A stretch of 64,000 nucleotides of DNA from Gammaproteobacteria bacterium (GCA_022360445.1 JAKSCV010000108.1:1-64000), one strand, 5' to 3'. Numbered from the stretch's first letter, positions 8,965-51,449 are shown. Program-made: numbers and translations. Notes: a model not told the origin generated them from the sequence alone.

Positions 8965-8995
8965 TAATTTTAATATATCGGTGATGGGAGCTATC

Positions 8996-10147: not shown

Positions 10148-10198
10148 ATCGCCAGGCTGTCTAATTAATCAATTTAAACTTTGAACTGAGGAGCAAAA

Positions 10199-11368: not shown

Positions 11369-11381
11369 GGAGGAGAAACGT

Positions 11382-35390: not shown

Positions 35391-35595
35391 GGGTCTCTCC
35401 AAAAGCAGAATAAGTTGAGTAATACTATAAAAGTTACCACAACACCCAAAACAGAGGCAGCTGAGTCGGTGTCCAGACTCCCTGGTTTCGCCAAGCGCTG
35501 AAATCTTCAATCGGTCAGCAGGGTGTGTTGTGGCTATTTTGGCCTTGTTTTTTCTGGCTAAGTTATGATTTACACACAAGATGAGGGGCTCACCA

Positions 35596-36690
35596 ATGAA
35601 ACGGAGCAACCGATATCTAACGTTTGTTTTTACAGCGTTTATTGCCATATTGGCGTCTTGCGGTAGCGAGTCGACTCGCGAGGAAGCAAGCACCGTCAGT
35701 GAATCGGCCTTAAGTCCCGATTGCTTTATCGAACACCCGGAGAATCCGATTATCACCTCCGGTGACTTTTCTGCCGAGCTGTCTCTTACACAGTCCACCT
35801 GGAATGACCCGCACGTGATTAAAGAAGGCAATACCTACTACATGTATGCCTCTTCTGATGATCACTTTAACCACGACATAAAAATTTACCGTCTGTCATC
35901 AATGGACGGTATTCAATGGCAGCCGGATCCGGCACATCCTGTTTTGGGAAAAAGTCCGGGCGAATGGGATAGTCAAAGTACAGAAACCCCGGCAGTTATC
36001 AAGCTAGCGGACACATACCATATGTTTTGGACCGGCTACGCCGATTACACAAACGTTACCGATTTCAAAATCGGACACGCCACATCTCTTGATGGGGTTA
36101 CCTGGGTTAAAGATGAAAACTTTTTAATTGGCCCCTCGGCCCCGCACGCGGACCCTAACTTTGAGTTTGACCAGTATGTCGTGGCCGAGCCGGCGCCTGT
36201 CGTTTTCAACGGTATGATCTACCTGTACTTTTCTGCATTGGGGATCAATGCCGAGTTGGGAAAAACCCAGCAAGTGATTGGAGTCATCACTTCAAGTGAC
36301 GGGATTCATTGGACCGCGCCACAGCCTGCGATTATTCCCGATCAGTCGCTTTATCCAAGAGAAAGCCCCGAATACTACAAAGGCTACTCAACACCACACG
36401 CCCTTGTGCTTGATCAACAAATTCATCTTTTTTTTGACGTTATTCGCACTAACGAGGCTGATACATTGTTCAGCCAGCAAAAAATTCATCATGCGGTCTC
36501 CGCAAATGGGATAAATGGCTGGCAACAGGATGAAAAAGCGATCATCGATTATCGCGATGCGGCATGGACTGAAGATGAAGTACGATCCCCTGCCGCTTAC
36601 CTCGAAGGAGACCAGCTATTACTGTGGTACGCTGGGCATTCTCTGTCCCCCGTATCTTTGGGAATTGGACTTGCCACGTGCCTGCGATAA
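35596..36690 (+). CDS. lipoprotein with GH43-like beta-propeller
   Basis: A 364-residue predicted lipoprotein. A signal peptide ends in the lipobox ILASC (Cys near residue 21). The rest has glycosidase-like five-bladed-propeller repeats: NPIITSGD, TWNDPHVIKEGNTYYMYASS, ETPAVIKLADTYHMFWTGY, VAEPAPVVFNGMIYLYFSA, STPHALVLDQQIHLFFD and VRSPAAYLEGDQLLLWYAG. The spacing matches GH43/GH130-type folds, and the first blade Asp in NDPHVI could be catalytic. The substrate is unknown. An earlier in-frame ATG at 35581 exists, but the GAGGGG site favours 35596. No carbohydrate-use genes flank it. Confidence 0.72.
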   Translation: MKRSNRYLTFVFTAFIAILASCGSESTREEASTVSESALSPDCFIEHPENPIITSGDFSAELSLTQSTWNDPHVIKEGNTYYMYASSDDHFNHDIKIYRLSSMDGIQWQPDPAHPVLGKSPGEWDSQSTETPAVIKLADTYHMFWTGYADYTNVTDFKIGHATSLDGVTWVKDENFLIGPSAPHADPNFEFDQYVVAEPAPVVFNGMIYLYFSALGINAELGKTQQVIGVITSSDGIHWTAPQPAIIPDQSLYPRESPEYYKGYSTPHALVLDQQIHLFFDVIRTNEADTLFSQQKIHHAVSANGINGWQQDEKAIIDYRDAAWTEDEVRSPAAYLEGDQLLLWYAGHSLSPVSLGIGLATCLR

Positions 36691-36857: not shown

Positions 36858-36923
36858 AAGTAAGTCCGTGAGAGACCGGCGGTAAATTCATATGAGCAGC
36901 GGTTAATGACAGGAGATTTAAGT

Positions 36924-37463
36924 ATGACGACAAAGGAAATCATTGATGCCTTGTTAAAACTGCTAGAGCTCATCATTTCCTGGCCCACCTTATTTTTGCT
37001 AATGGGGATCGTCTTTTACAAAGATGTGAAAGAGGCGATGCCTAATTTGCTCAAACGGATCAGGAAGGCTCCCGGCGGCTGGGAGTTTGATGAAGAACTT
37101 CAGGAAGTGAAAGCAGAAGTTGCGGAATTGATCAATAAAAATGAAATTGAAAAAGACAGCACCGTTTTAAAAGTTGATCCACACAAAATACACTTAACTC
37201 ACATCAGTACACCACTGGATGGGAAGTACTGGTCGGTGACCGCTAAGCTGGAAGCGCCCGAAGACTTTATGAGTCTGATTGAACGAGTGGAGTTTGAACG
37301 GCACCCCACGTTTAAAAATCGCACCCATGTTGTTCGTGAACAGCCTTTTGTAGACAAAATCAAGTGCTGGGGAGCGTTCACAATGAAAGCGCACATTTAT
37401 CTCAACGACGGACAAGTCATCAAACGCCAACGGTTCCTGACGCTGAGCGAAACCACTGATTGA
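36924..37463 (+). CDS. membrane-anchored protein with putative prokaryotic YEATS (pYEATS) domain
   Basis: A 179-residue protein with one transmembrane helix near residues 14-32 (LIISWPTLFLLMGIVFY). A charged amphipathic stretch (about 33-75) follows, and then a cytoplasmic beta-rich domain (about 85-175). That domain contains WSVTAKLEAPEDFMSLIERV, FERHPTFKNRTHVV and KCWGAFTMKAHIYLNDGQ. The order of a hydrophobic strand, a HPTF motif, a WG-F strand and an acidic-Gly hairpin matches the YEATS immunoglobulin-like fold. pYEATS domains occur in predicted bacterial conflict and signalling systems. Its ligand is unknown. I chose ATG 36924, 9 bases after AGGAG, over 36906. No partner effector adjoins. 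Confidence 0.6.
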   Translation: MTTKEIIDALLKLLELIISWPTLFLLMGIVFYKDVKEAMPNLLKRIRKAPGGWEFDEELQEVKAEVAELINKNEIEKDSTVLKVDPHKIHLTHISTPLDGKYWSVTAKLEAPEDFMSLIERVEFERHPTFKNRTHVVREQPFVDKIKCWGAFTMKAHIYLNDGQVIKRQRFLTLSETTD

Positions 37464-38717: not shown

Positions 38718-38912
38718 ATGCCAATTATTCGTGTAGAAATGATCGAAGGGCGCAGCGCTGAGCAAAAGCAGGCCCTCTCACAAGCCTTAACGGATGCGTT
38801 TGTGCAAACGTGTCAGGGTAAGGCCGAATCTGTTTATGTCGTGATTGAAGATGTTAAAAAAGAAAACTGGGCAATTGCCGGCAAGTTGGTTTCCCAGAGG
38901 AGTGAGTCATAG
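38718..38912 (+). CDS. 4-oxalocrotonate tautomerase-family protein
   Basis: A 64-residue tautomerase of the 4-OT/MSF superfamily. The mature protein would start with Pro (MPIIRVEMIEGRSAEQKQ), the catalytic base of the family. The typical second half (YVVIEDVKKENWAIAGKLVS) includes the E-V/K-NW segment. It may act on an enol intermediate; a link to the adjacent convergent CoA-thioester operon is possible but unproven. A GAAGGAA site precedes the ATG. Confidence 0.88.
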   Translation: MPIIRVEMIEGRSAEQKQALSQALTDAFVQTCQGKAESVYVVIEDVKKENWAIAGKLVSQRSES

Positions 38913-38970: not shown

Positions 38971-39759
38971 CTATTTGCCTTGAAAGTTGGGCTTGCGCTT
39001 TTCATTAAACGCTGCCACGCCTTCTTTGGAATCGGTTGTCGTGTGGAGAAAGTTGGCCCATTGGCGTTCAATTTTCAGGCCGCTGGCGGTGTCTGAATCA
39101 AAAGCGGCCAGTGCACAAGCCTTCAGTGCCGTTTGTGAAACCGGAGCGCCTTTTAGGTACGGTGCACTCAATTCTTTCGCCGCTTGCAGGACATCGGCCG
39201 CAGGTGCGATGGCTTGGGCAAAACCCCAATCCAATGCGGTCTGACCATCAATCGGATCGCCTGAGAGCATCATATGTTTAGCACGTGAAAGGCCAATCAC
39301 ACGCGGCAATCGCTGAGTGCCGCCAGCCGCTGGTAGAACACCGAGCCTGACTTCAGACAACGCAATGCGTGAGTTATCAGCAACGACGCGGACATCACAC
39401 GCCAGGGCCAGCTCGCACCCACCGCCGTAGGCGATACCCGACATCGCAGCCACAATCGGTTTAGGGTATGTTTCCATGCGGGTAAAAAGCTGATTGATGC
39501 CGTCCAGAAAGCGTTTGGACGCCAACGCCGGGTTGTTGCCTTTGGCTCGGGCATGCACGCTTTTTAAGTCAGCCCCGGCGCAAAAGGCCCGCTCACTTCC
39601 CGTAATAATGAGCACTCGGGGCTCAAGCTCGCCTTCTAGTGTGTCCAGCAGTTCAGTGAGCTCTTCACCCAGCTCGATGCTAATGGCATTGAGCAGGTCA
39701 GGGCGGTTGAGTGTGATAATCCCGTAAGGGCCATCCTGTTCATACAGTAGTGATGACAT
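38971..39759 (-). CDS. enoyl-CoA hydratase
   Basis: A 262-residue crotonase-fold enzyme adding water to a 2-enoyl-CoA. Both catalytic Glu are present: Glu116 in YGGGCELALACD and Glu136 in LSEVRLGVLPAAGGTQRL. The oxyanion-hole segment is FCAGADL. It is therefore a hydratase rather than a BadI-type ring hydrolase. I start at the ATG at 39759, six bases after GGAG; ATG 39762 and TTG 39771 are alternatives. Last gene of the nine-gene minus-strand operon, 25 bp after the SDR. Confidence 0.9.
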   Translation of the reverse strand: MSSLLYEQDGPYGIITLNRPDLLNAISIELGEELTELLDTLEGELEPRVLIITGSERAFCAGADLKSVHARAKGNNPALASKRFLDGINQLFTRMETYPKPIVAAMSGIAYGGGCELALACDVRVVADNSRIALSEVRLGVLPAAGGTQRLPRVIGLSRAKHMMLSGDPIDGQTALDWGFAQAIAPAADVLQAAKELSAPYLKGAPVSQTALKACALAAFDSDTASGLKIERQWANFLHTTTDSKEGVAAFNEKRKPNFQGK

Positions 39760-39784
39760 CATCTTCTCCAAAGGTTGTGAATCG

Positions 39785-40594
39785 TTACAGCGTCATGGAA
39801 TAACCGCCATTGACGGGAATGGTCTGGCCGGTAATAAAGCTGGATGCGCCCGAGGCCAGAAACAGTACCATCGCCGCTGGGTCAGATGGTTCACCAAAAC
39901 GCTTAATCACATAGCGTGACAGGGCTTTTTTGGCGATATTCGGGTTACTCTTAACGGCTTCGGCCGACTTGGCTGTGGCCGGGGTATTCGTTGCACCCAG
40001 TGCGACACAGTTGGCGGTGACATTGTGGCGGCCGAGCTCTTTGGCCAGGCCACGGGTAAAGCCAGCCGTACCGGCTTTGGCCCCGGAGTAAACAAGCAGG
40101 TTGTTGGGCTCGCCAACGCGACCTGCGTCTGAAATGATATTGATCACACGGCCGTATTGTTTTTCGATCATGTGCGGTATGAGTGCGCGGCAGGTGAACA
40201 TTGGGGAGTAATAATTAACACGAATCCACATTTCCCAGTCTTCTGGTGACGTTTCAAAAAAGCTCTTCCTGCTGGCCAGCGCTTCGGCGGTGGCTGGGCC
40301 CGCATTCCCCGCATTGTTAACGAGAATGTCCACACCGCCCAATTGGCTTTTGGCGTCTTCAGCCATCTGTTGGACCTTTTTCCAGTCGGTAATGTCGGCA
40401 GGGAGCGCGAGCCCTTTGGAACCGGCTGCATCGACTTCGGCCGCTACGGCTTGCGCACGTTCGGCGACAATGTCGTTGATGATCACGCCTTGAGCGCCGT
40501 GTGCTGCCATGAACAAGGCAATCTGGCGTCCGACACCTTGGCCGGCCCCCGTAATCAGAGCGACTTTTCCGGAAAGATCGAGTAAATCAGACAT
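39785..40594 (-). CDS. short-chain dehydrogenase/reductase (BadH/FabG-like)
   Basis: A 269-residue classical SDR expected to oxidise the 3-hydroxyacyl-CoA made by the hydratase. Cofactor motif TGAGQGVG begins at residue 15 and NNAG lies at 93-96. The catalytic triad is Ser155, Tyr169 and Lys173. Asp41 at the end of the second strand (INDIV) suggests NAD rather than NADP. It resembles 2-hydroxycyclohexanecarboxyl-CoA dehydrogenase (BadH) in length and motifs, but FabG-like functions cannot be excluded. Same operon, 42 bp after the CoA-transferase-family gene. Confidence 0.88.
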   Translation of the reverse strand: MSDLLDLSGKVALITGAGQGVGRQIALFMAAHGAQGVIINDIVAERAQAVAAEVDAAGSKGLALPADITDWKKVQQMAEDAKSQLGGVDILVNNAGNAGPATAEALASRKSFFETSPEDWEMWIRVNYYSPMFTCRALIPHMIEKQYGRVINIISDAGRVGEPNNLLVYSGAKAGTAGFTRGLAKELGRHNVTANCVALGATNTPATAKSAEAVKSNPNIAKKALSRYVIKRFGEPSDPAAMVLFLASGASSFITGQTIPVNGGYSMTL

Positions 40595-40636
40595 GTTAAT
40601 TTCCTTTTGAATGATTAATTTAAAAATGGTTGATAC

Positions 40637-41803
40637 TTAATCCGTTTGGATCTCATTCGTTCTGATTGCGCCTGATCTCAGAGCATTTTGTAATGTCTCA
40701 TCATCAATACCTGAGCGGCGGAGTACCTCCAACGTGTGTTCGCCTTGTGCAGGTGCCTGCGTATTCGAGGGAGTATTTTCGTTAACACCCATCATAACGG
40801 GATAGCGCATTTGCAGGCCATTTGCGTCCTGAAAAAATCGTTGGCGGGCCTGGATTTGCGGGTCGTCCAGGATGTCACGTGTCTGATTGAGTGGTGCTGC
40901 AGGTACGTCAGCTTGCTCAAAGAGAGGAATCCAGTCGTCCCGCCTTTTTGTTTTTAAGGCTTTTTTGATCTCGGCATCGATGTGTTTGGGGTTGCTTTCT
41001 CGCGGATCAGGGTTTTGAGTGGGCCAATCCTCATGACCGATCACCTCACACAGACCCTTCCAAAACTGGGGTTCGATCGCGCCAAGCGTTAACCACTTGC
41101 CGTCTTCACATGGGTAAGCGCCATAGCCCGGCATGGCATGGGTTTGTGCTGTTTGGCCTTTTTCATCGTCAGCGCCTATGTGGGCTGCTCGCATAGGCAG
41201 GGCAATGGCGGCCGCTGAATCTGTCATGGAAACATCAATACGCTCGCCTTCGCCAGTCTTTTGGCAGCGGTAAACGGCAGAGACGATGGAGAGTGCCGCG
41301 AACAGTGCTGAGCTTTCGTCGGCCACCGGCAAAGGGTTGGTTTCCCCGGTTTTGGAGCCGTTATCCAAAGCGCCTGCAACGCCCATGTAGTTGGCGTCAT
41401 GGCCGGGCCAGTCCCGGTAAGGACCGGTTTGCCCAAAGCCGCTGATGGAGCAATATACCAGCTGGGGGAAGTCACTTTTGAGTGCGTCATACCCCATGCC
41501 TAACCGCTCCATCACTCCCGGGCGAAAGCTTTCTAGGAGGACATCAGTATCCGCCAATAACGCACGGAGAAAGGCGCAGCCTTCATCGGTCTTCAAGTTG
41601 AGGGCAACCGATTGGTTACCGGCATTGAGCAAGGTGTAAGCTGCGGGGCGGAAACTACGCATGTAATCACCGAGTCCCGTGTCTTCGACTTTGATCACTT
41701 CTGCGCCCAGTTGACGCAGCAGCATGCTGGCGTAGGGTCCGGGCAATAAACGGCTTAAATCTAGAATTTTGATACCGCTTAGGGGTTGGTCTTTATTTTC
41801 CAT
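40637..41803 (-). CDS. CaiB/BaiF family protein, alpha-methylacyl-CoA racemase-like
   Basis: A 388-residue class III CoA-transferase-fold protein. The catalytic Asp162 (PLPVADES) is common to the family. In addition GHD at 134-136 gives His135, aligned with the racemase base that true CoA transferases lack. That pair favours alpha-methylacyl-CoA racemase activity, which would fit a branched or ring-substituted substrate whose alpha-carbon must be set to the form accepted by the dehydrogenases. CoA transfer remains the alternative. It lies 6 bp after the PaaK-like gene. Confidence 0.85.
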   Translation of the reverse strand: MENKDQPLSGIKILDLSRLLPGPYASMLLRQLGAEVIKVEDTGLGDYMRSFRPAAYTLLNAGNQSVALNLKTDEGCAFLRALLADTDVLLESFRPGVMERLGMGYDALKSDFPQLVYCSISGFGQTGPYRDWPGHDANYMGVAGALDNGSKTGETNPLPVADESSALFAALSIVSAVYRCQKTGEGERIDVSMTDSAAAIALPMRAAHIGADDEKGQTAQTHAMPGYGAYPCEDGKWLTLGAIEPQFWKGLCEVIGHEDWPTQNPDPRESNPKHIDAEIKKALKTKRRDDWIPLFEQADVPAAPLNQTRDILDDPQIQARQRFFQDANGLQMRYPVMMGVNENTPSNTQAPAQGEHTLEVLRRSGIDDETLQNALRSGAIRTNEIQTD

Positions 41804-41809
41804 CGTCGT

Positions 41810-43123
41810 TTACTTCTTCTTGGTGCGGTCCATGAATTTAACCAGTTTATGCGGCGCTGGGCGGGGGATAACCTCTAACGGCACCCAGGTGATTTCAGAG
41901 GCCACCCCCAGATTTTGTGAAAAGGCTGTGGCCAACTTGTCGCGCAGTGCATCCGGGTCGGATGTGAGTGCGTCATCGTAACAAATGGAAACCGTCAATT
42001 TGTCTTGTACCGGTGCTTCTTTGCTGATGAAAAATTGGGCTTTGGCCGTTTCTGGAAAACGCTGCAGAATACGCTCAATGTCATAAGGCAAAAAGCTGTT
42101 GCCGTTGACATTGACCCGCCAAATGGAGCGCCCCAGGATTTTTCCATAGGGGTGCGAAAAATGGGTGGAGTGATCGCCCATCATGTCGATAAAGTCTTCG
42201 GTAGCAAAGCGGATGTAAGGCACGCCTTTGACCCGCAGATTGGTTGCGATGAGTTCGCCTCGGCCGACATCTCCAATTTTTTCCATCGAGTCCGGGTCAA
42301 ACACTTCCGCATAACCGATATCTGCCCAGTAGTGGGCGCCGGGCAGTTCCGGGTCGCCCCCTTCAAAAAACCAGCAGTAACTTTCGCCGCAGCCACCGCC
42401 GTCGCTGATCTGGACGCCGCCCCAATCGCGCTGAATGTTTTCCCGTGCGGTGTCTGTCAATGACTCGCCCATGGTGCTGATGATTTGAACCTGGCCGAGA
42501 ATGTCATGCGGATCTTCTCCCGCTTTGTGAATGGCGTCCAGCAAGAGCGCTGCGGCCGTTTCGGTGGTAATCATGGGAAAGGCATCGGGTTTGTAAGCCT
42601 TGATGGCTGAGACGTTGATGCCCGTCATGACCGGACGCATTTGTAAACGACGGATAACACCCCAAGTGATGGGTGTCAGCCAGTGCCAGTTGCCATGGCG
42701 AGTCATCACTCGCATGCCGGGGCGGTAGCCGGCATCCCAGTAGGACCGGCAGATTGCCTCGATCGCAATATCCAGGTCCTCTCGCGTGTAGCCCCCCATC
42801 GTGGGCCAGCCCGTGGTGCCCGATGAGGTCCAGATGGCAACCAGCTGGGACTGAGGTACACAGGCGAGCCCACCGTAGGGGTCACCGGTGGCGATCTGGT
42901 AGTCGCGAATGTCATCTTTGCGTACGATGGGCACGTGTTGTTCAAAGTCGCCCCAAGTTTGGATCTTTTCTGGACGCAGTTTATGTTTGTCGTAGAGCTG
43001 CCGGTAGAAAGGCGAACGGTCGTAAACGTAATTGAGTTGTTGCTTGATCAGTTTCAGTTGCAAGGCTTTCAGGTCTTGCTGTGGCATGGTCTGCGCTGTT
43101 TTGTTCCAGTAGTCCGGTTTCAT
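41810..43123 (-). CDS. phenylacetate-CoA ligase (PaaK)-like adenylating enzyme
   Basis: A 437-residue PaaK-type ligase with the ATP motif SSGTTG at residues 100-105 and the N-terminal LKLIKQQLNYVYDRSPFYRQL signature. The central VQISDGGGCGESYCW acid-binding region is present. The C-terminal lid (GRSIWRVNVNGNSFLPYDIE) ends with HKLVKFMDR carrying candidate Lys. The acid substrate is not phenylacetate by default; pocket residues differ. It starts 14 bp after a shorter homologue lacking the ATP motif, so the two probably work together. It presumably feeds acid into the pathway as a CoA thioester. Confidence 0.85.
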   Translation of the reverse strand: MKPDYWNKTAQTMPQQDLKALQLKLIKQQLNYVYDRSPFYRQLYDKHKLRPEKIQTWGDFEQHVPIVRKDDIRDYQIATGDPYGGLACVPQSQLVAIWTSSGTTGWPTMGGYTREDLDIAIEAICRSYWDAGYRPGMRVMTRHGNWHWLTPITWGVIRRLQMRPVMTGINVSAIKAYKPDAFPMITTETAAALLLDAIHKAGEDPHDILGQVQIISTMGESLTDTARENIQRDWGGVQISDGGGCGESYCWFFEGGDPELPGAHYWADIGYAEVFDPDSMEKIGDVGRGELIATNLRVKGVPYIRFATEDFIDMMGDHSTHFSHPYGKILGRSIWRVNVNGNSFLPYDIERILQRFPETAKAQFFISKEAPVQDKLTVSICYDDALTSDPDALRDKLATAFSQNLGVASEITWVPLEVIPRPAPHKLVKFMDRTKKK

Positions 43124-43137
43124 GTTTTATCCTCCCC

Positions 43138-44163
43138 TTACTCGATGTAGAACCGCGGTTCATGGGTACCACAAGGGCTCGGTGATCGATCGAGATAACC
43201 CTGGATCTCTGTCTGGTAGCGGACTAGGGGGGCTCCGCGTACAAAGCGGGGTGTCACGGTAAGGTAGCCACGTTCGCCATCGGGCAAACGTTGCCCGGCC
43301 TGATTAGTGATTTCCACGGAAAACATGTCATCAGCAATGATAAACCCGTTACGATCCTCAGTTTCCTGCGCGTAGAAGAAGGCCTCCCAGACTTGCAGGG
43401 TCTGATAAATGGTTACGCCCCACTTTTGTTCCAATTCGGTACGGGCCTGTGACGTCAGGGGTTCGGATTCTCTGAGCACGACGAAGTCATAGCCCAGGTC
43501 ACGGATTGTTTGATTGTTTTCTTGGAGTTTGTCCTGTACGGCCGCCATGTGTTCGCGGTTAGCAAAGATGGTTTTCGGCTTGAACAGGGTGGCGGTGGCA
43601 ATCGTTCGGGGAGCTTCAAATGGGACAATTTCCAACCGCAAAGCGGTAACGCCGAGTACCTCTTCCACCGAAGGGGCCAGGTAGGATGAAGATCCAGCAG
43701 CCGAGGTGATATAACACATGACGAACGGATCATTCCCCCAGCTTAAGGTTTGCACGACATCTTCGCGCTTAATGCCGAGCAAGCTCCACTGACGGCAGAG
43801 CAGTGAAATGACCTGCTGTCGCTCCTGTTCGGTAATCGGCACGTAGTATTCCATGCCTTCAATGGTGGACAGCGGCGTCAGCGTGAATCCCAGCGGGGTA
43901 AAAATATACAAAAAAGAACGTTCTGGAATGGCGCGGCGACCGGCGTAAAGGTCAGTTTCGTCGACGTGAGCGCCTTTCAGCAGGTCGGCCTGCCGGATGA
44001 CCGGTAAATCTTCCAAACGATCGGTTGTGAGACCCTGCCACAATTTTTTATAGAGCGGTGTGCTCGATGCGATGGCCAGTAGGCTGCGCAGTTCAATGTC
44101 TGCTTCGGGCTTAATATGGCGACGGTCTACTTGCGCCGCCGGATTCCAAAGGCGTGCTTCCAT
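43138..44163 (-). CDS. degenerate PaaK-like protein without the ATP motif
   Basis: A 341-residue relative of the N-terminal part of PaaK ligases. It has the helical start (LRSLLAIASSTPLYKKLW) and the fold up to VWEAFFYAQETED and GERGYLTVTPRFVRGAPLVRYQTE. Where the SSGTTG loop should be it reads FTPLGFTLTPLSTIEG, and the C-terminal lid domain with the catalytic Lys is missing. It is not obviously truncated by mutation: the frame is intact, the ribosome site (GGGGAGGAGG) is strong and it sits in an operon. A regulatory or structural partner of the adjacent full-length ligase is the best guess. Confidence 0.75.
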   Translation of the reverse strand: MEARLWNPAAQVDRRHIKPEADIELRSLLAIASSTPLYKKLWQGLTTDRLEDLPVIRQADLLKGAHVDETDLYAGRRAIPERSFLYIFTPLGFTLTPLSTIEGMEYYVPITEQERQQVISLLCRQWSLLGIKREDVVQTLSWGNDPFVMCYITSAAGSSSYLAPSVEEVLGVTALRLEIVPFEAPRTIATATLFKPKTIFANREHMAAVQDKLQENNQTIRDLGYDFVVLRESEPLTSQARTELEQKWGVTIYQTLQVWEAFFYAQETEDRNGFIIADDMFSVEITNQAGQRLPDGERGYLTVTPRFVRGAPLVRYQTEIQGYLDRSPSPCGTHEPRFYIE

Positions 44164-44196
44164 TTTTCCTCCTCCCCATTTTAAGAGAATTTATTG

Positions 44197-45309
44197 TTAT
44201 TTTTTGAAGACAGCGACGGCGCAAACACCCCCATAACCTTGTGTATGGGTAATGGCGGCTTTAGGGTCATTCTGTACTTGCCGGGTGCCGGCTTCTCCGC
44301 GCATTTGCCAGGTAATTTCACAGACTTGGGCGACACCCGTCATACCCAGAGGGTGGCCTCGGGCTTTCAGGCCGCCACTGGGATTCACGGGTAATTTACC
44401 GGTTATGTCGGCATGGCCTTCCTCAATAAACCAGCCTCCTTCGCCGATAGGGCAAAATCCCAGCTCTTCGTAGTGCATAATTTCCCCAATTGTGAAGGCA
44501 TCATGGCACTCGGCTAGCTGGATATCTTCGGCGCCAATACCAGCCATTTCATATGCGGTTTCAGCGGTCCGACGGCTGGCTTCCCAATCGTCAACCCCGT
44601 AACGTGATGTTTCCACTGAGCTGCCTGCCACATAAATCAATGGCTTTTGAGTAAAACGCCGGGCCACTTTGTCACTGGCCAGTACAATGGCTGCTGCTCC
44701 ATCCGATGTGGGGCAGCACTCCAGTAGTTTGATGGGGTCGCAGACCAGTCGCGAGTTCATAACCTCTTCGAGGGTGACTTCATTGCGGTACTGGGCGATC
44801 GGGTTTAAAGCGCCGTTTTTATGATTTTTGACGGCGACCATGGCCATCTGCTCTTCCGTTGTACCAAACTCATGCATGTGTTTTTTGGCTTTGAGAGCGT
44901 ACAGAGAGGGCATGACGTTCAGGCCCATGCGCGCGCCGAAAGAGGAGGGTTCGCCAATGCCGCCAATGACACCGCGTTGCATTTTCTCAAATCCGGCGAC
45001 CAGCACCACATCATGCGCGCCGGACAAGATGGCTTGTGTGGCCATGTGAATAGCAGTTGTGCCGCTGGCGCAGGCGTTTTCAACGTTGAACATGGGAATG
45101 CCCGTCAAACCAAATTCCTGGCCGATAATTTCGCCGGCCGAAATACCCTGGCGGGTGTGTGAGGCAAAAAAGGCTTGGATATCAGTCCAGTTGGTACCGG
45201 CATCGTCGAGCGCATTTTGCGCGGCCGTGAAGGCAATGTCGGTAAATGTTTTATCGGGGTGACGGCCGCAGGGATGCATGCCTGCGCCGATGATTGCAAC
45301 TTGAGTCAT
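44197..45309 (-). CDS. SCP2/lipid-transfer-type thiolase
   Basis: A 370-residue thiolase of the sterol-carrier-protein-x type. The nucleophile is Cys80 in NVENACASGTTAI. ECHDAFTIGEIM, NPSGGLKARGHPLGMTG and THTQGYGG complete the active site. These thiolases usually pair with a DUF35 zinc-ribbon/OB-fold protein, encoded here 24 bp upstream. The family includes true beta-ketothiolases and the Ltp2-type retro-aldolases of steroid side-chain degradation. Because Cys80 and the GHP His are intact, thiolysis is the first guess. Confidence 0.88.
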   Translation of the reverse strand: MTQVAIIGAGMHPCGRHPDKTFTDIAFTAAQNALDDAGTNWTDIQAFFASHTRQGISAGEIIGQEFGLTGIPMFNVENACASGTTAIHMATQAILSGAHDVVLVAGFEKMQRGVIGGIGEPSSFGARMGLNVMPSLYALKAKKHMHEFGTTEEQMAMVAVKNHKNGALNPIAQYRNEVTLEEVMNSRLVCDPIKLLECCPTSDGAAAIVLASDKVARRFTQKPLIYVAGSSVETSRYGVDDWEASRRTAETAYEMAGIGAEDIQLAECHDAFTIGEIMHYEELGFCPIGEGGWFIEEGHADITGKLPVNPSGGLKARGHPLGMTGVAQVCEITWQMRGEAGTRQVQNDPKAAITHTQGYGGVCAVAVFKK

Positions 45310-45333
45310 GGCTTATCTCCTGTGAAATCAGTC

Positions 45334-45768
45334 TTAGGCCGGAATAAAAACGGGTCCGAGCACCTGTCGATCTTCAGCGTCGTTAAACAACGGGCGGATA
45401 TCCGTTGTAACCCGCATTCCTATCTCGGCTTGTTCTGGTGTGCAGCCGAGCAGCTGGGTTGAGACTTTGACTCCGTCATCGGTGGTGACCTGAACGATGA
45501 TGTAAGGCACGTCGCCTTTCCAGTCCGGTGAGCCCTGGCGGACCACGGTAAATGACTTCAACTCACCGCCAGCGGCCAGTGGTGTGTGTGTCATGTCGGC
45601 TTTGAAACAATTGGGGCAGCGCAGAACGGCTGGGAAAACAGCTGTGCCACAATGTGTGCATTTGGCGGCGACAAAATGAGGTTTGCCATCTTCACTAAAG
45701 GTGAATGTGTCTTTCGCAACCGGTGTTGCCCAGCCTTTTTCCAAGGCTTCCTGGTAGTTTGTTGCCAT
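45334..45768 (-). CDS. DUF35 zinc-ribbon/OB-fold protein
   Basis: A 144-residue protein with a rubredoxin-like zinc ribbon (CTHCGTAVFPAVLRCPNC) followed by an OB-fold (about 70-135). Such proteins bind SCP2-type thiolases and probably channel acyl-CoA. An ATG at 45780 also opens the frame. It is part of the sequence ATGGAGAACCACATG, in which GGAG serves as ribosome site for the ATG at 45768, so I choose the latter. It is placed between a dehydrogenase gene and the thiolase. Confidence 0.88.
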   Translation of the reverse strand: MATNYQEALEKGWATPVAKDTFTFSEDGKPHFVAAKCTHCGTAVFPAVLRCPNCFKADMTHTPLAAGGELKSFTVVRQGSPDWKGDVPYIIVQVTTDDGVKVSTQLLGCTPEQAEIGMRVTTDIRPLFNDAEDRQVLGPVFIPA

Positions 45769-45782
45769 GTGGTTCTCCATGG

Positions 45783-46931
45783 TTAATTAAAAGCCCGCAG
45801 GCCTGTCAGGCCCCGACCGATAATGAGTTTTTGAATTTGTGTTGTGCCATCGGGAATGGTCAAAAGGCGGGCTTCTCTAAAATAGCGCTCAACAGGAAAC
45901 TCGCTCGAGATGCCACAAGCGCCATGTATTTGAACCGCTTTTGAGGCCACATCGATGGCCGCTTCAGTGGCATAGCCTTTGGCCATTGATGTTTGTATGT
46001 CGCAGCGTACGCCCTGGTCGACCAGGTAAAGCCCACGCAGGGCGAGTAGTCGTGCGTTATCGGTCAGCGTGGCCATGTCCGCGATCATTTCCTGGATCAT
46101 TTGGTGTTGCGCGATGCGCTTGCCCCACTGTTCGCGTTCCTGGGCATAAGCGATGGCCAGATCGAGACAAGCCTGGGCAATGCCTACTGATAACATCGCA
46201 ACGTATGCGCGTGCGGTCTGGAAGCCCACCAGGGTGATTTGCAGGCCTTTGCCTTCATCGCCCACCTGCCGCCAGTCAGGGACTTTGGCATCGAAACTCA
46301 GCGTGGCGGTGGACCATTCGTTCATCGCCATTTTAGGAATATCACGGGAGGTATAGCCGTCTTTGCGTTCGACGAGGAAGCGCGACAGGCCGTTTTTACC
46401 GTCACCGGTGCGAGCCACCACTGATGCAATGTCCGAGATATTGCCGTTGGAGATCCAGACTTTTTCGCCGGATATGGACCAGCCATCCTCAGTGCGTGTG
46501 GCCCGGGTGGAGACATCTGCTGTGTTGGAGCCCACGTCAGGCTCGGTGATGGCACCGCAACCGATCATCTCAGCGTTCAGCATTTTCTGCAGATAAGTAT
46601 CCTGTTGCTTTTTGCTGCCGGCCATTGCAATCCGGTTTGTCATGGCCGAATGGATGAAAGCGGTACCCGCCAGGCCAGGAAAGGCACGCGACAAGCGCTC
46701 CGTCAGAAGTCCCTGCATGACATTCGATAAGCCGTAGCCGCCCACAGATTCGGGGGCTGTGCCTGCGATATAGCCAAACTCTGCCAGCTCAGCAAGCACC
46801 TGGCGAGCAACCGATTTGGGTAGTGGTACGTCGTTGTATGCCTCGCGCAAAGGCTTAATACGCTTTTCGATGAAGCGATCGACCGCATCGAGCAGCAGTA
46901 ATTCTTCTTCCGTACGTTTTAAAAACTCCAC
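45783..46931 (-). CDS. acyl-CoA dehydrogenase, paralogue A (Asp type)
   Basis: A 382-residue acyl-CoA dehydrogenase with AITEPDVGSNTADV (flavin/substrate segment), EREQWGKRIAQHQMIQ and a C-terminal IPDGTTQIQKLIIGRGLTG. The residue at the classic catalytic Glu position is Asp361, and the helix-G Glu is absent. It is clearly homologous along its whole length to the neighbouring gene at 46983, with shared stretches such as FPVERYFREAR versus YPVERYFREAR. This indicates a tandem duplication followed by divergence, so the two may dehydrogenate successive intermediates or form a heteromer. Confidence 0.88.
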   Translation of the reverse strand: MEFLKRTEEELLLLDAVDRFIEKRIKPLREAYNDVPLPKSVARQVLAELAEFGYIAGTAPESVGGYGLSNVMQGLLTERLSRAFPGLAGTAFIHSAMTNRIAMAGSKKQQDTYLQKMLNAEMIGCGAITEPDVGSNTADVSTRATRTEDGWSISGEKVWISNGNISDIASVVARTGDGKNGLSRFLVERKDGYTSRDIPKMAMNEWSTATLSFDAKVPDWRQVGDEGKGLQITLVGFQTARAYVAMLSVGIAQACLDLAIAYAQEREQWGKRIAQHQMIQEMIADMATLTDNARLLALRGLYLVDQGVRCDIQTSMAKGYATEAAIDVASKAVQIHGACGISSEFPVERYFREARLLTIPDGTTQIQKLIIGRGLTGLRAFN

Positions 46932-46982
46932 CGTGTCCTCCTGCGGGGTTGTCCGGTGTTATTGTTAGGTTACCGAATGAGC

Positions 46983-48134
46983 TCAGAACGCGGGCAAGCC
47001 GGTGAGGCCGCGCCCAATAATTAACTTTTGGATCTGCGTTGTGCCATCGGGGATGGGCAAAATCCGAGCTTCCCGGAAATAGCGCTCCACCGGATATTCT
47101 TTGGAAATACCGTAAGCACCGTGAATTTGGACTGCCATGGAAGCAACCTTAACGGCCATTTCCGTGGCATAAGCTTTGGCCATGGACGTTTGCACATCGC
47201 AACGCACGCCCTGGTCGACCAGATAAAACCCGCGGAAGGTGAGCAAACGGGCGGCGTCCACCATTGTGGCCATATCGGCGAGCATTTCTTGAATCATCTG
47301 GTGCTGGCCAATGCGTTTGCCCCATTGCTCACGTTCTTTGGCGTATTCAATGGCGCATTCCAGGGCCGCCTGTGCGATTCCCAGCGATAGCGTGGCCACA
47401 TAACAGCGAGCGGTTTGAAACGCGATTAACGTGCTGGATAGGCCCGCACCTTCGTCGCCAATTTGTCGCCAGGCGGGCACATAGACCTGATTAAAATGGA
47501 CATTGGAGGTTGGCCACTCGTTCATCGCCATTTTCGGGATATCCTGAGTAGTGTAACCATCGGTGCGTTCGACAATAAAACGGGACAAACCACCTTTGCC
47601 CTCACCGGTGCGGACGATAGCGGTGCAGATATCTGAAATATCCCCGTTGGAAATCCATGACTTTTCGCCGTTGATCACCCAGCCGCCATCGTCATGGCGT
47701 TTTGCGGTGGTCTGGATATTGGCTGGGCTGGAACCCACGTTGGGCTCGGTGATGGCGGCACAGGCAATCATCTGGCCGCTCATCAGCTTTTCCAGGTAAG
47801 CGTCCCGGTGTACATCGGTGCCATCCACCGCAATGCGTGTCGCTGATGAGGATGTAATAAACGTTAAACCTGCCAAACCGGGGAAGGCCTTCGCCAGGCG
47901 TTCATAAAGGAGGCCCATCATGGTTTGGGAAAGACCAAAACCACCTACGTCTTCCGGTGCACTGCCGCCAATAAAACCCAATTGAGACAACTCACCAAGA
48001 ATTTCGTGCGCGACAGATTTTGGAATGGGGGTATTGTTATAGTCTTTCCACAGTGGCTTGATGCGATTTTCAATAAGTTTGTCAACGCTATCCAGCAACA
48101 CGCGTTGCTCTTCGCTGATCTGGACAAAATCCAT
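46983..48134 (-). CDS. acyl-CoA dehydrogenase, paralogue B (Asp type)
   Basis: A 383-residue acyl-CoA dehydrogenase, first gene of the nine-gene operon. It shows AITEPNVGSSPANI, EREQWGKRIGQHQMIQEML and IPDGTTQIQKLIIGRGLTG with Asp363 at the catalytic position. It is a close paralogue of the next gene, 51 bp downstream. The start is the ATG of MDFVQISEEQRVLLDSVDKLI, with GGGGAGG upstream. A palindromic operator candidate lies 180 bp upstream, so this is probably where pathway-specific control acts. Confidence 0.88.
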   Translation of the reverse strand: MDFVQISEEQRVLLDSVDKLIENRIKPLWKDYNNTPIPKSVAHEILGELSQLGFIGGSAPEDVGGFGLSQTMMGLLYERLAKAFPGLAGLTFITSSSATRIAVDGTDVHRDAYLEKLMSGQMIACAAITEPNVGSSPANIQTTAKRHDDGGWVINGEKSWISNGDISDICTAIVRTGEGKGGLSRFIVERTDGYTTQDIPKMAMNEWPTSNVHFNQVYVPAWRQIGDEGAGLSSTLIAFQTARCYVATLSLGIAQAALECAIEYAKEREQWGKRIGQHQMIQEMLADMATMVDAARLLTFRGFYLVDQGVRCDVQTSMAKAYATEMAVKVASMAVQIHGAYGISKEYPVERYFREARILPIPDGTTQIQKLIIGRGLTGLPAF

Positions 48135-48315
48135 CCCTTGTTTACCTCCCCGGGCTATGTTTTGTTTTTATGAACTGTATTGGTAGAACCTTTGCCGGAA
48201 AGCTTATGCGAAGCCAGGGGTTGAATCAATGTTTCTTTACTGGTGGGGAAGAATTTATTTATTTGATCATCGGTTGCAGGCGCTGTGCATCCGCATGATG
48301 GCAACTAATCGATTC

Positions 48316-48341
48316 TGTCAATGGACAAATTTGTATTGACA
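48316..48341. promoter_or_regulatory. palindromic operator candidate upstream of nine-gene operon
   Basis: TGTCAAT (48316-48322) and ATTGACA (48335-48341) are perfect inverted repeats. Between them lies a second palindrome, ACAAATTTGT (48325-48334), offset by one base. On the minus strand a TTGACA lies within the repeat and could be the -35 of the operon, so binding would block transcription. A TetR- or FadR/GntR-type site is plausible; no such regulator is encoded in the window. The rest of the 407-bp gap (48135-48541) shows no gene. Confidence 0.5.
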
Positions 48342-48531
48342 TCGGTAGACGACTGCCAGGTGACAGCGCTTGTTGAGCCGCCCTCGCGCCCGGAGGATTG
48401 ACTCGGACAAACAGAGGAGGGCAAAAGCGGTTTGTGCTTGAGGGTGGTCGTGTAAAAACGTGTCAGTGCCTACCTTACAACACAGGGAGTTTTTGTTGCA
48501 GGGTTTGTCGCAAAAAGAGCGTCAGAGGCCT

Positions 48532-48553
48532 GGCCTGGGTATTAACCCTGGCC
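48532..48553 (-). terminator. hairpin with the stop codon in its loop
   Basis: GGCC-A-GGGT pairs with ACCC-A-GGCC around a 4-nt loop that contains the first bases of the TAA stop of the flavoprotein gene. A T5 run follows only 15 bases later, so intrinsic termination is doubtful. Confidence 0.35.
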
Positions 48554-49486
48554 AGCGGCGGTGTATTCGGCTTTAAGCTGGTCGATGATCATTTTTGCGC
48601 TGCTGACGGTTTGAATGCCGCCTACGCCGTGACCTGCGCTCCAGATATCTTTCCAGCGTTTTTTATGTTGCATGTCGGGGTTGAGGTCGGTGGTGACTTC
48701 CACCGAACCGTGTTCGCGTATGGGCAGGTTGTTTGGATCCAGTCCGGCAGCTTGAATACTGGGAATGAGCATATTGGCGTCCAGCCCGGTAAAGGCTCGG
48801 GTGAGCAGGATATCGTCCATTTTGGCGTCAACCAACATTTTCCGGTAAGCGTCCTGAGCCATGCTTTCGCTGGCGGCGATAAAGCGGGTACCCATGTAGA
48901 CCAGGTCTGCCCCCAGCATTTGTGCCGCGCGGATGGCCACGCCGTCGGTGACGCCACCGGCCAGGACGATCACGCCGTCAAACATTGCGCGTACGGCCCG
49001 TGTGAAGGCGAAGGGGTTGGCCCAACCGGTTTGCCCGCCGGAGCCAGCACACAGGAGAATTAACCCGTCAACGCCCGAGGCGATGGCTTTTTCGGCATGG
49101 CGAATGGAGACGATGTCGGCATAGACCTGGCCACCGTAGCTGTGTACGGCCTCGACGACGTCTTTGGGGTTGCCCACGCTGGTGATGACGATGGGTGTTT
49201 GGTATTTGACAAGCAGATCCACGTCATCTTGTAGCCGGGGGTTGGTTTTGTGTACGACCAGATTGGCGGCCACCGGTGCCCAGTGAGGGTGTTGGGTTTT
49301 GGCGTCTTCGAGGCTGGCCAGCCAGCTTTCCAGAACGTCGGTGCTGCGGGCATTGATAGTGGGAAAACTACCGATAACACCATTGCTGCAGCAGGCGGCG
49401 ACGAGTTCGGGACCCGAGACCAGAAACATGGGGGCGGCAATGGCGGGTAGGCTCAGTTGGGATGAGATCGAGGTAGGGAGTGCCAT
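48542..49486 (-). CDS. nitronate monooxygenase-like FMN protein
   Basis: A 314-residue TIM-barrel flavoprotein of the nitronate monooxygenase/2-nitropropane dioxygenase/FabK superfamily. Seen are the N-terminal AAPMFLVSGPELVAACCSNGVIGSF, the LCAGSGGQTGW glycine loop, VLAGGVTDGVAIRAAQMLGADLVYMGTRF (phosphate-binding strand) and the conserved late AGHGVGGI. Members oxidise nitronates or reduce enoyl-CoA; which applies is unclear. I start at ATG 49486 (AGGAG seven bases upstream). The Pro-rich N-terminal extension of the longer frame is not conserved. It follows the kinase gene by 28 bp. Confidence 0.85.
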   Translation of the reverse strand: MALPTSISSQLSLPAIAAPMFLVSGPELVAACCSNGVIGSFPTINARSTDVLESWLASLEDAKTQHPHWAPVAANLVVHKTNPRLQDDVDLLVKYQTPIVITSVGNPKDVVEAVHSYGGQVYADIVSIRHAEKAIASGVDGLILLCAGSGGQTGWANPFAFTRAVRAMFDGVIVLAGGVTDGVAIRAAQMLGADLVYMGTRFIAASESMAQDAYRKMLVDAKMDDILLTRAFTGLDANMLIPSIQAAGLDPNNLPIREHGSVEVTTDLNPDMQHKKRWKDIWSAGHGVGGIQTVSSAKMIIDQLKAEYTAAGQG

Positions 49487-49514
49487 AGAGTCTCCTGTGG
49501 CGGGTGGATGAGGG

Positions 49515-51428
49515 TTATGCGGGAGCGGCGGTGGCTTCGGTTGTGTTTTCCGAAAAGGTTTCAATTGGCAGAGTGAGTATGATGCGGGTGCCCTGGCTAC
49601 TGGAGTCCAGCTGTAGAGCCACGTTGATCAGTTTGGCTCGCTTTTGCATATTGTTCAGCCCATAGCCTGTTGGCTTGTGCGGGTTTTTCTGGATGCCCGT
49701 GCCATCGTCGCGAATGGTGAGAACAACGGCGTGTTGCCCAGCTTCCTCACGGGTTTCGGTGCTGAGGGTGATGGTCCTGGCCTGGGCATGTTTGAGGGTA
49801 TTAGTGACGAACTCCTGCAGGATACGCATGATTTGCAGAGCTTTTTCGGGGCCGAATTCGGGGATGTCCGGCACGAGTCTGACTTGCCAGTCGAAGGTGA
49901 GGCCGGCGTTGTGCAATTGAGGCGCCACCCGTTCTCTGAACATGCCGAGCATGGTGAGAAGGTCGCCACCGGCGGAGTCGAGTGAGTCGATCATTAACCG
50001 CATGTCGCTCAAGGCGCCGCGCAGGGATTCTTTAATCCGGCCCGCTTCTGTGTTGCCGGCTTCGACCATAGCCAGGGTGGAGACCAATGTGCCGCCCATG
50101 CCGTCGTGCATGTCGCGGGTGATGCGCTCACGCTCCTGAGCCAGTAGTTTCTCATTCTCGAGTTTGTTTAAGCGACGGAAGTTGATTTCCAGTTGCTTAC
50201 TCTTTTCTTCAACGCGCTGTTCCAGCTCGCGGTTGAGGACTTCGGTTTCTGTGACGGAAGCGACGAATCGCCGGATGAGGATGCTACCGAAAACGCCAAG
50301 CAAGACCGGGGCAGCATAGTGTAGGTAAAGGCCCCGTTCCCAACCATCAAAACCGAGGAAGACCATGATGTCGTGTGCGGAGTAAATCAAAATCAGTACA
50401 CCGCACAGGGCGAGCGCCTGGATTTCATTGTGTTTTTGGCGCCAGCCTTCCACGATCAGTTTTATGATCACATAAGCCCCTAATATAAAGACAATCAGGT
50501 ACCAGACTTGCTCTGCCGCAAAGTAAAACAAGTCTTCTGGAAGCGTCAGTAAGGAGAGGGAGGCCAATAGCATAAACAAGGTGATGGCTTTTTCTCGTTG
50601 TGGGAGGCATTGCCCGACAAAACGGTGGGTGTAATGCATCATGGCAATGCCAAAGTACCCAATAGTGGCGTAGGCAACCCACTCCCAGATCCGGGTGGGG
50701 ATGGGGATATCCCGTACCAGAACATTGAGGTTGTGAACGGCCCAGATTAGGTTTGCCAGACCAAAATAACCGTAGATGGTTTCCTGCCGGCGAATGCTCC
50801 AGAGCAGACAGGCGAGCAAACCCATGGCGATAAGCACGGCGGTAATCATTTGAACGACACCCACCCGCAGAAACTCGATGGTTTCGTGCATGTCGTAGAG
50901 TTCTGACTGTGGGGCAATGATCACATCGCTGAGGGACCCGTGCCCGGCGTGCAGGCCTTTAACTCGAATGAGAATTTCATTCGTGTCGGGCTGGATTAAT
51001 GTCGTTGGAATGTTGGCCAGCAAAGGTTGAACCCAGTGCCGGGCGACAGGGTCTTGGAACTGGCCGCCACGACCAATTTCGATACCGTTAAAAAAGATGG
51101 CAGCATTCATGGTGATTGATGGCAGCAGGATGCCTAGCAGTTCATTAGTCTGGGCTGGAGTTGCCATCATCACTCGATACCAGGCCTCGTCCAGCGAGGT
51201 GTTTTGGTGATCGGTGTTGCCCCAATGATGGGGGAACGCAGCGGGCTCCCAGTTTACGTTGATTAACTCGCTGGGGTGTGTGGCGGTGGAGGGGGTGTAC
51301 TCTACGGAGAGGACATTTATGCGGTGCTCAGGTCCCGGTATGCTGTAGGTAAATGAGCTAAGAGCGAAAATCACGACAAAAAGGTAAGCAAGAGCCCATC
51401 CCGTTGTAAATTGAGCATGGTTTTTCAT
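49515..51428 (-). CDS. NarL-type membrane sensor histidine kinase
   Basis: A 637-residue kinase. One N-terminal helix (about 10-30) precedes a periplasmic beta-rich domain (about 35-180). Seven hydrophobic helices at about 185-392 follow in a 7TMR-DISM-like arrangement. A coiled coil (about 396-430) leads to the HisKA_3 dimerisation helix with phospho-acceptor His441 in DMHDGMGG, then the HATPase domain (LQEFVTNTLKHAQ, RDDGTGI, TGYGLNNMQKRA). The extracytoplasmic domain suggests a sugar- or small-ligand-like signal. It pairs with the regulator gene 21 bp upstream. Confidence 0.9.
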   Translation of the reverse strand: MKNHAQFTTGWALAYLFVVIFALSSFTYSIPGPEHRINVLSVEYTPSTATHPSELINVNWEPAAFPHHWGNTDHQNTSLDEAWYRVMMATPAQTNELLGILLPSITMNAAIFFNGIEIGRGGQFQDPVARHWVQPLLANIPTTLIQPDTNEILIRVKGLHAGHGSLSDVIIAPQSELYDMHETIEFLRVGVVQMITAVLIAMGLLACLLWSIRRQETIYGYFGLANLIWAVHNLNVLVRDIPIPTRIWEWVAYATIGYFGIAMMHYTHRFVGQCLPQREKAITLFMLLASLSLLTLPEDLFYFAAEQVWYLIVFILGAYVIIKLIVEGWRQKHNEIQALALCGVLILIYSAHDIMVFLGFDGWERGLYLHYAAPVLLGVFGSILIRRFVASVTETEVLNRELEQRVEEKSKQLEINFRRLNKLENEKLLAQERERITRDMHDGMGGTLVSTLAMVEAGNTEAGRIKESLRGALSDMRLMIDSLDSAGGDLLTMLGMFRERVAPQLHNAGLTFDWQVRLVPDIPEFGPEKALQIMRILQEFVTNTLKHAQARTITLSTETREEAGQHAVVLTIRDDGTGIQKNPHKPTGYGLNNMQKRAKLINVALQLDSSSQGTRIILTLPIETFSENTTEATAAPA

Positions 51429-51449
51429 ATTTTTGGTGAGGTGTCCTGA

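What the first reader, a model, noticed from the sequence alone, without database searches (positions are those of the whole stretch)
38971..48134. Nine-gene operon for degradation of an unidentified CoA-activated acid
Nine minus-strand genes with gaps of 6-51 bp encode ligase, racemase-like, two dehydrogenases, hydratase, SDR and thiolase functions: a full beta-oxidation round plus stereochemical correction. The set differs from the known paa, bad, ali and steroid clusters in using two PaaK-like proteins and an AMACR-like enzyme. Alicyclic, terpenoid or branched acids are candidates.
Basis: partly seen in the sequence, partly recalled or inferred. Interest (0 to 1): 0.7.

Follow-up and report, generated by a model that had tools for sequence, protein, structure and literature searches.

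The report
Branched-acid β-oxidation operon with pseudo-ligase
Nine neighbouring bacterial genes most likely load a bulky or branched acid onto coenzyme A and cut it once by beta-oxidation; the parts are ordinary, but one gene is a conserved 'dead' copy of the loading enzyme, and similar dead copies sit beside that enzyme in unrelated bacteria.

Summary
In detail: nine co-directional genes at 38971-48134 with gaps of 2-51 bp. Order and spacing are conserved in a second species (UBA5861 MAG, 89-98% amino-acid identity), and all nine are under purifying selection. They encode two acyl-CoA dehydrogenases, a DUF35/OB-fold subunit plus BbsB/SCP2-type thiolase, a full PaaK ligase, a second PaaK-like protein, an AMACR-like CaiB protein, an SDR and an enoyl-CoA hydratase. 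It lacks the P-loop, the ribose-binding Asp and the C-terminal domain, yet is conserved (dN/dS 0.04). Short PaaK-derived proteins ending near the same boundary sit next to or near CoA-ligase genes in Massilia, Sphingomonas, Novosphingobium, Rhodococcus and Mycobacterium. Three features (AMACR signature, Pro-Asp instead of Tyr-Glu in both dehydrogenases, SCP2-type thiolase) point to an alpha-substituted acid. BoxB, BcrB/C-type reductase and ring-hydroxylating dioxygenase were not found, which weakens the aromatic reading. The substrate remains unknown. No exact counterpart was found outside this genus in the sampled collections. Verdict: a new variant of a known kind; the pseudo-ligase is the part worth testing.

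The parts
46983..48134 (-). Acyl-CoA dehydrogenase A (383 aa); loop J-K motif PDGTTQIQ at residues 362-369: Asp in place of the usual catalytic Glu, Pro in place of the usual preceding Tyr
   Evidence: Pfam ACAD domains; PDB alignments; position; dN/dS 0.046
45783..46931 (-). Acyl-CoA dehydrogenase B (382 aa, GTG start), 66% identical to A, same PDGTTQIQ motif
45334..45780 (-). ChsH2/DUF35-type zinc ribbon (CxxC x2) plus OB-fold protein, predicted non-catalytic subunit of the thiolase (BbsA-like)
   Evidence: Pfam PF12172/PF01796; PDB matches 6ok1_B, 9myr_B, 6esq_E, 7pxp_A
44197..45309 (-). SCP2/BbsB-type thiolase (370 aa) with Cys in ENACASG, HDAF at 269 and GHPLG at 318
   Evidence: PDB matches 6hsj, 6esq, 7pxp; residue positions; alignment A8
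43138..44163 (-). Catalytically dead PaaK paralog (341 aa): no SGTTG P-loop, A7 Asp replaced, C-terminal domain absent; predicted partner of the ligase
   Evidence: No Pfam hit; weak PaaK-model hits; hhalign to PaaK profile 98.8%; alignment A5; dN/dS 0.042
41810..43123 (-). Full-length PaaK-family CoA ligase (437 aa) with SSGTTG, TED and a C-terminal HKLVK Lys
40637..41803 (-). AMACR-like CaiB/family III protein (388 aa) with GHD, Asp and GAIEPQF, predicted 2-substituted acyl-CoA epimerase
   Evidence: Pfam PF02515; best PDB match M. tuberculosis MCR with all three acid/base residues conserved; alignment A7
39785..40594 (-). SDR 3-hydroxyacyl-CoA dehydrogenase-like (269 aa) with YxxxK
38971..39771 (-). 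Enoyl-CoA hydratase (266 aa, TTG start) with both crotonase Glu residues (GGGCELA, SEVRLG)
48135..48541 (-). 407-bp gene-free leader upstream of the first gene; probable promoter region (no consensus sigma-70 match found)
   Evidence: gap of 413 bp conserved in the sister MAG

Best explanation
A catabolic operon for an alpha-substituted (alpha-methyl-branched or alpha-alkyl/alicyclic) carboxylic acid. Proposed steps: (1) the PaaK ligase, probably as a hetero-oligomer with the dead PaaK paralog 43138-44163, makes the acyl-CoA. (2) The AMACR-like protein epimerises the alpha-carbon, so that both stereoisomers enter. (3) One or both paired ACADs make the alpha,beta-enoyl-CoA, with an Asp base and a widened pocket. 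(4) The crotonase hydrates it. (5) The SDR oxidises the alcohol. (6) The thiolase/DUF35 pair cleaves the alpha-substituted 3-oxoacyl-CoA, releasing a chain-shortened acyl-CoA plus an alpha-substituted short acyl-CoA (propionyl-CoA if the substituent is methyl). Shown: gene identities, conserved catalytic residues, conserved gene order and purifying selection, and loss of the ligase motifs in 43138-44163. Inferred: co-transcription, direction of the pathway, each reaction, the ligase hetero-oligomer and the substrate class.
For: All enzymes of one beta-oxidation round are present with catalytic residues. The CaiB protein keeps the AMACR His/Asp/Glu with GAIEPQF, not seen in the CaiB proteins of comparable clusters. 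Both ACADs have Pro-Asp where Tyr-Glu is usual; PMC11659651 reports that smaller residues at the Tyr position go with alpha-substituted substrates. The thiolase has the nucleophilic Cys and HDxF of SCP2/BbsB thiolases, not the YDxF/Y of Ltp2/Sal aldolases described in PMC12329534. Related thiolases act on alpha-substituted substrates: benzoylsuccinyl-CoA for BbsAB (PMC10818641); the ibuprofen thiolase IpfDE yields propionyl-CoA (PMC9195938). The operon is conserved in a second species with low dN/dS. The genome shows 53 ACAD matches and 12 SCP2-type thiolase matches, fitting a specialist in complex acids. The dead PaaK is conserved and recurs; PaaK dimerises through its second sub-domain (PMC4432964), roughly the region that the dead copies keep.
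Against: No substrate-specific orthology, transporter or characterised regulator ties the operon to a compound. Asp-type ACADs also occur in other genes of this genome, so the motif is not exclusive to alpha-branched substrates. The acid/base Cys of HDCF-type SCP2 thiolases is Ala here (as in BbsB). The fold model of 43138-44163 was too poor to use (mean pLDDT 38), so hetero-oligomer formation has no structural support of its own. No RNA data.
Confidence: 0.62

Rival explanations
1. Side-chain beta-oxidation of an aromatic acid (arylpropionate or benzylsuccinate type) that ends in benzoyl-CoA, a bbs-like pathway with a ligase instead of the CoA-transferase.
For: Same enzyme kinds as bbs (DUF35 + thiolase, CaiB, ACAD, ECH, SDR); the PaaK family often takes aryl acids; thiolase matches 7pxp and the BbsB model at 238 bits.
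Against: BbsB/BbsA scores are far below cut-off (238 of 750; 37 of 250). One CaiB and one SDR instead of the pairs BbsEF and BbsCD. No BoxB, no HGD-D (BcrB/C-type) and no PF00848 dioxygenase in a 98%-complete genome. Class II benzoyl-CoA reductase was not tested.
Confidence: 0.15
2. Retro-aldol (Ltp2/Sal-like) steroid side-chain pathway.
For: DUF35 + thiolase-fold pair and paired ACADs, as in steroid clusters; PaaK/pseudo-PaaK clusters in Massilia, Sphingomonas and Novosphingobium carry such aldolase-like proteins.
Against: The thiolase has the nucleophilic Cys and HDAF rather than a YDxx motif; an SDR for the 3-hydroxyl is present, which the aldol route does not need; no HsaA over cut-off in the genome.
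Confidence: 0.06
3. The operon runs in the synthetic direction (reductive chain extension of a branched acyl-CoA).
For: [quoted passage not shown]
Against: A CoA ligase and epimerase for free acids are expected in breakdown; no carrier protein, ketosynthase or thioesterase in the run; ACADs normally pass electrons to ETF.
Confidence: 0.07
4. 43138-44163 is a decaying ligase pseudogene and the rest is an ordinary operon.
For: Loss of P-loop, A7 Asp and C-terminal domain.
Against: dN/dS 0.042 at dS 0.53, intact frame in two species, in the middle of an operon with ribosome-binding site; other truncated PaaK proteins recur next to or near ligase genes elsewhere.
Confidence: 0.05

Closest known systems
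bbs operon (benzylsuccinate beta-oxidation, anaerobic toluene degradation)
   Same: DUF35 subunit + thiolase, family III CaiB, ACAD, ECH and SDR in one operon; thiolase aligned to 7pxp (BbsB) with shared HDAF
   Different: Ligase instead of the two-subunit CoA-transferase, one SDR instead of two, AMACR signature in the CaiB protein, a dead PaaK, two Asp-type ACADs; below curated cut-offs
bad/ali cyclohexanecarboxylate pathway
   Same: ACADs give their third-best NCBIfam score to a cyclohexane-1-carbonyl-CoA dehydrogenase model; the SDR scores on BadH
   Different: Below cut-offs (238 of 650; 166 of 431); no BadI-type ring hydrolase; thiolytic end instead
DUF35-thiolase-SDR-ECH-CaiB modules on proteobacterial plasmids (Azospirillum, Novosphingobium, Salipiger, Cupriavidus; substrate unknown)
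   Same: Thiolase 42-45% identical, with SDR, ECH and CaiB beside it or nearby
   Different: No PaaK, no pseudo-PaaK, no ACAD pair in the stretch
Natrinema caseinilyticum plasmid cluster
   Same: SDR, ECH, two ACADs, DUF35, thiolase, PaaK and a second PaaK without SGTTG within 12 kb
   Different: Archaeal, 23-42% identity, genes on both strands, second PaaK keeps its C-terminal domain, no CaiB in the run
PaaK + short 'hypothetical protein' pairs (Massilia putida, Rhodococcus DMU1, R. jostii RHA1 pRHL2, Mycobacterium branderi, Sphingomonas paeninsulae)
   Same: Full PaaK directly followed by a truncated PaaK-derived protein without P-loop or C-terminal domain
   Different: The short protein also lacks about 100 N-terminal residues; the thiolase-fold proteins of the Massilia and Sphingomonas clusters look like aldolases
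Ibuprofen ipf cluster (IpfF ligase, IpfDE thiolase)
   Same: From the literature and own knowledge: CoA ligase plus two-gene thiolase acting on an alpha-methyl acid, releasing propionyl-CoA (PMC9195938)
   Different: Uses a ring dioxygenase; no beta-oxidation enzymes; sequence not compared here

Membership tests
bbs operon (benzylsuccinate beta-oxidation) | BbsA and BbsB above curated cut-off | tested here: not met
   NF053628 238 of 750 bits; NF053627 37 of 250 bits
bbs operon (benzylsuccinate beta-oxidation) | Two-subunit CoA-transferase BbsEF and two-subunit dehydrogenase BbsCD | tested here: not met
   One CaiB and one SDR gene
bad/ali cyclohexanecarboxylate pathway | Cyclohexanecarboxyl-CoA dehydrogenase and BadH above cut-off | tested here: not met
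   TIGR03207 182/186 of 575; NF043006 214/238 of 650; TIGR03206 166 of 431
paa phenylacetate pathway | PaaK and PaaF/PaaG above cut-off | tested here: not met
   TIGR02155 140 of 646; NF007239 207 of 371; TIGR02280 168 of 345
Ltp2/Sal steroid aldolases | YDHF/YDCY motif and no nucleophilic Cys | tested here: not met
   Gene 44197-45309 has ENACASG and HDAF
SCP2/BbsB-type thiolase with DUF35 subunit | Nucleophilic Cys, HDxF, GHP motif, adjacent DUF35 gene | tested here: met
Alpha-methylacyl-CoA racemase (AMACR/MCR) | His126, Asp156 and Glu241 (MCR numbering, from own knowledge) with GAIEPQF | tested here: met
   All conserved in the alignment to 1x74/8rmw
Alpha-methylacyl-CoA racemase (AMACR/MCR) | Epimerase activity on 2-methylacyl-CoA | not testable with these tools
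   Needs an enzyme assay
PaaK-type CoA ligase, for gene 43138-44163 | P-loop SGTTG, ribose-binding Asp, C-terminal domain | tested here: not met
   alignment A5; no AMP-binding Pfam hit
PaaK-type CoA ligase, for gene 43138-44163 | Common descent with the PaaK N-terminal domain | tested here: met
   hhalign 98.8%, 313 columns; negative control 0.3%
PaaK-type CoA ligase, for gene 41810-43123 | P-loop, A7 Asp, C-terminal domain with Lys | tested here: met

The most novel reading that the evidence does not exclude
PaaK-family CoA ligases of several catabolic operons work as obligate hetero-oligomers of one active subunit and one truncated, catalytically dead PaaK paralog. The dead subunit fills the dimer interface and shapes the acyl pocket or recruits the next enzyme: an apparently undescribed two-subunit form of adenylate-forming ligase, here attached to a new alpha-substituted-acid pathway.
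Probability: 0.33. Interest if true: 0.6.

Novelty: new variant of a known kind. Interest (0 to 1): 0.4.

Why it matters
The operon adds a conserved, uncharacterised route for a bulky acid in a gammaproteobacterial genus known here only from MAG-like assemblies and unusually rich in acyl-CoA dehydrogenases. More generally, it points to an overlooked protein family: PaaK-derived pseudo-ligases annotated as 'hypothetical', sitting beside active ligases in Proteobacteria and Actinobacteria, with a looser parallel in a haloarchaeon. If they form hetero-oligomeric ligases, many catabolic clusters are misread when these genes are ignored, and reconstitution of the ligases from a single gene may fail.

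Tried and rejected
AlphaFold model of 43138-44163 with the permitted four-sequence alignment: mean pLDDT 38, not used for fold search. Search for the short pseudo-PaaK family in 398 proteobacterial genomes: nothing at E<=1e-6 in that sample, so its spread was judged from plasmids only. Literature: nothing on UBA5861, on PaaK with an OB-fold thiolase, or on an Asp-based ACAD with cyclohexane. Rejected: dead PaaK as a decaying pseudogene (dN/dS 0.042); Ltp2/Sal aldolase (motifs differ); direct bbs, ali, bad or paa orthology (scores below cut-offs). NMO/histidine kinase/response regulator were left out of the operon (407-bp gap, link unproven). Consensus promoter and terminator scans found fewer sites than shuffles and were not used.

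Full report
Observation. The nine minus-strand genes are real and lie where stated. The window belongs to a 3.46-Mb, 98%-complete genome. Its only held congener is the MAG 'Halothiobacillaceae bacterium UBA5861', class Gammaproteobacteria. The same nine genes occur there in the same order with gaps of 57, 2, 24, 47, 14, 6, 42 and 13 bp and 89-98% amino-acid identity. Nei-Gojobori dN/dS is 0.025-0.22 with dS 0.20-0.53, so every gene, including the odd PaaK-like one, is under purifying selection. Co-transcription is likely but unproven.

Gene by gene. 46983-48134 and 45783-46931 are acyl-CoA dehydrogenases, 66% identical. Where typical ACADs read Y-E-G-T in the J-K loop, both read P-D-G-T: Asp replaces the catalytic Glu and Pro the preceding Tyr (alignments). 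A paper on the naphthalene-pathway enzyme ThnO says the Tyr position becomes smaller in enzymes for alpha-substituted substrates (PMC11659651); it lists Gly or Ala, not Asp, as alternatives to the Glu. The same PDGT motif occurs in ACADs of roseobacter and Caballeronia clusters that also hold ECH, thiolase, SDR and often CaiB. 45334-45780 is a ChsH2/DUF35-type zinc ribbon plus OB fold. 44197-45309 is an SCP2/BbsB-type thiolase; it has the nucleophilic Cys (ENACASG) and HDAF, like BbsB 7pxp, and not the YDHF/YDCY of the Ltp2 and Sal aldolases. 41810-43123 is a complete PaaK-family ligase. 40637-41803 is a family III (CaiB) protein whose closest solved relative is the M. tuberculosis alpha-methylacyl-CoA racemase, with the acid/base His, Asp and Glu (GAIEPQF) all kept; the residue numbering His126/Asp156/Glu241 is from own knowledge. 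CaiB proteins of comparable clusters lack the GAIEPQF form. 39785-40594 is an SDR with YxxxK, and 38971-39771 a crotonase with both Glu residues.

The dead PaaK. 43138-44163 matches no Pfam family and only weakly matches PaaK-related NCBIfam models. By profile comparison it is homologous to the PaaK N-terminal domain over 313 columns (98.8%; negative control against CaiB 0.3%). In alignment A5 it lacks SGTTG, has Ile where PaaK has the ribose-binding Asp, and stops where the C-terminal domain would begin. It cannot be a second ligase of the ordinary kind.

Recurrence. In Massilia putida, Rhodococcus sp. DMU1, Rhodococcus jostii RHA1 pRHL2, Mycobacterium branderi and Sphingomonas paeninsulae a 'hypothetical protein' of about 220-235 aa directly follows a full PaaK gene; in Novosphingobium resinovorum it precedes another AMP-binding gene, about 14 kb from a PaaK. 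These proteins align to PaaK from about residue 104 to 334 (97%; control 0.3%) and also lack the P-loop and C-terminal domain. Their resemblance to the window protein itself is weaker (74%), so independent truncation is possible. In Natrinema caseinilyticum the second PaaK also lacks SGTTG, though it keeps its C-terminal domain. All six plasmid records with a detectable match have a CoA-ligase gene adjacent, but six is few, and a sample of 398 proteobacterial genomes gave none at E<=1e-6. PaaK forms a homodimer through its second sub-domain (PMC4432964), roughly the part that the dead copies retain. A hetero-oligomer of active and dead subunits is therefore a reasonable inference; it is not shown, and the fold model obtained was unusable.

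What it most likely does. Three independent features favour an alpha-substituted acid: the AMACR signature, the Pro-Asp pocket of both dehydrogenases, and the thiolase type. The proposed route is ligation, epimerisation, dehydrogenation, hydration, oxidation and thiolysis, giving propionyl-CoA if the substituent is methyl. An aromatic end product is disfavoured: no BoxB, no HGD-D (BcrB/C-type) and no PF00848 dioxygenase were found. Class II benzoyl-CoA reductase was not tested. No HsaA of the aerobic steroid ring pathway passes its cut-off. Alicyclic, terpenoid and branched acids all remain open. The genome holds 53 ACAD matches and had the most first-look candidates (66) of 114 sampled gammaproteobacterial genomes, which fits a specialist in complex acids.

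Relation to known systems. The operon is not a member of bbs, bad/ali, paa or the Ltp2/Sal systems by curated cut-offs or motifs, although it works like a bbs pathway with a ligase. The DUF35-thiolase-SDR-ECH-CaiB module is common on proteobacterial plasmids. Outside the genus, no cluster with the whole gene set was found in 369 gammaproteobacterial genomes searched with the ligase, 398 proteobacterial genomes searched with the thiolase, or the plasmid records inspected; the closest is N. caseinilyticum. These are samples with limited inspection, not a proof of absence.

Verdict. A sound observation and a mostly sound interpretation, with an unknown substrate and one overlooked feature, the conserved pseudo-ligase, that is worth an experiment.

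Noticed in passing
window 8981-12518: Three tandem acyl-CoA dehydrogenase genes on the + strand between a trp gene cluster and ruvB, only distantly related to the operon's pair (27-29% identity where compared).
   Followed up: partly
own genome G000 (L030-L059): 53 acyl-CoA dehydrogenase matches in 3.46 Mb, several in tandem pairs or fours; the highest first-look candidate count among 114 sampled gammaproteobacterial genomes.
   Followed up: partly
window 48542-52160: Nitronate monooxygenase-like gene (NMO), a 7TMR-DISM histidine kinase and a LuxR-type response regulator upstream on the same strand; possible regulator of the operon. An NMO gene also occurs in the Novosphingobium resinovorum cluster L077.
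   Followed up: partly
window 38718-38912: Short + strand ORF resembling a 4-oxalocrotonate tautomerase, convergent to the operon's end.
   Followed up: no
window 36906-37463: Protein with a C-terminal prokaryotic YEATS (pYEATS) domain, next to a GH32/GH43-like protein at 35581-36690.
   Followed up: no
L021, L076, L077 (thiolase-fold genes): Annotated thiolases without the nucleophilic Cys and with YDHF, so probably Ltp2-like aldolases, in clusters that also hold PaaK.
   Followed up: partly
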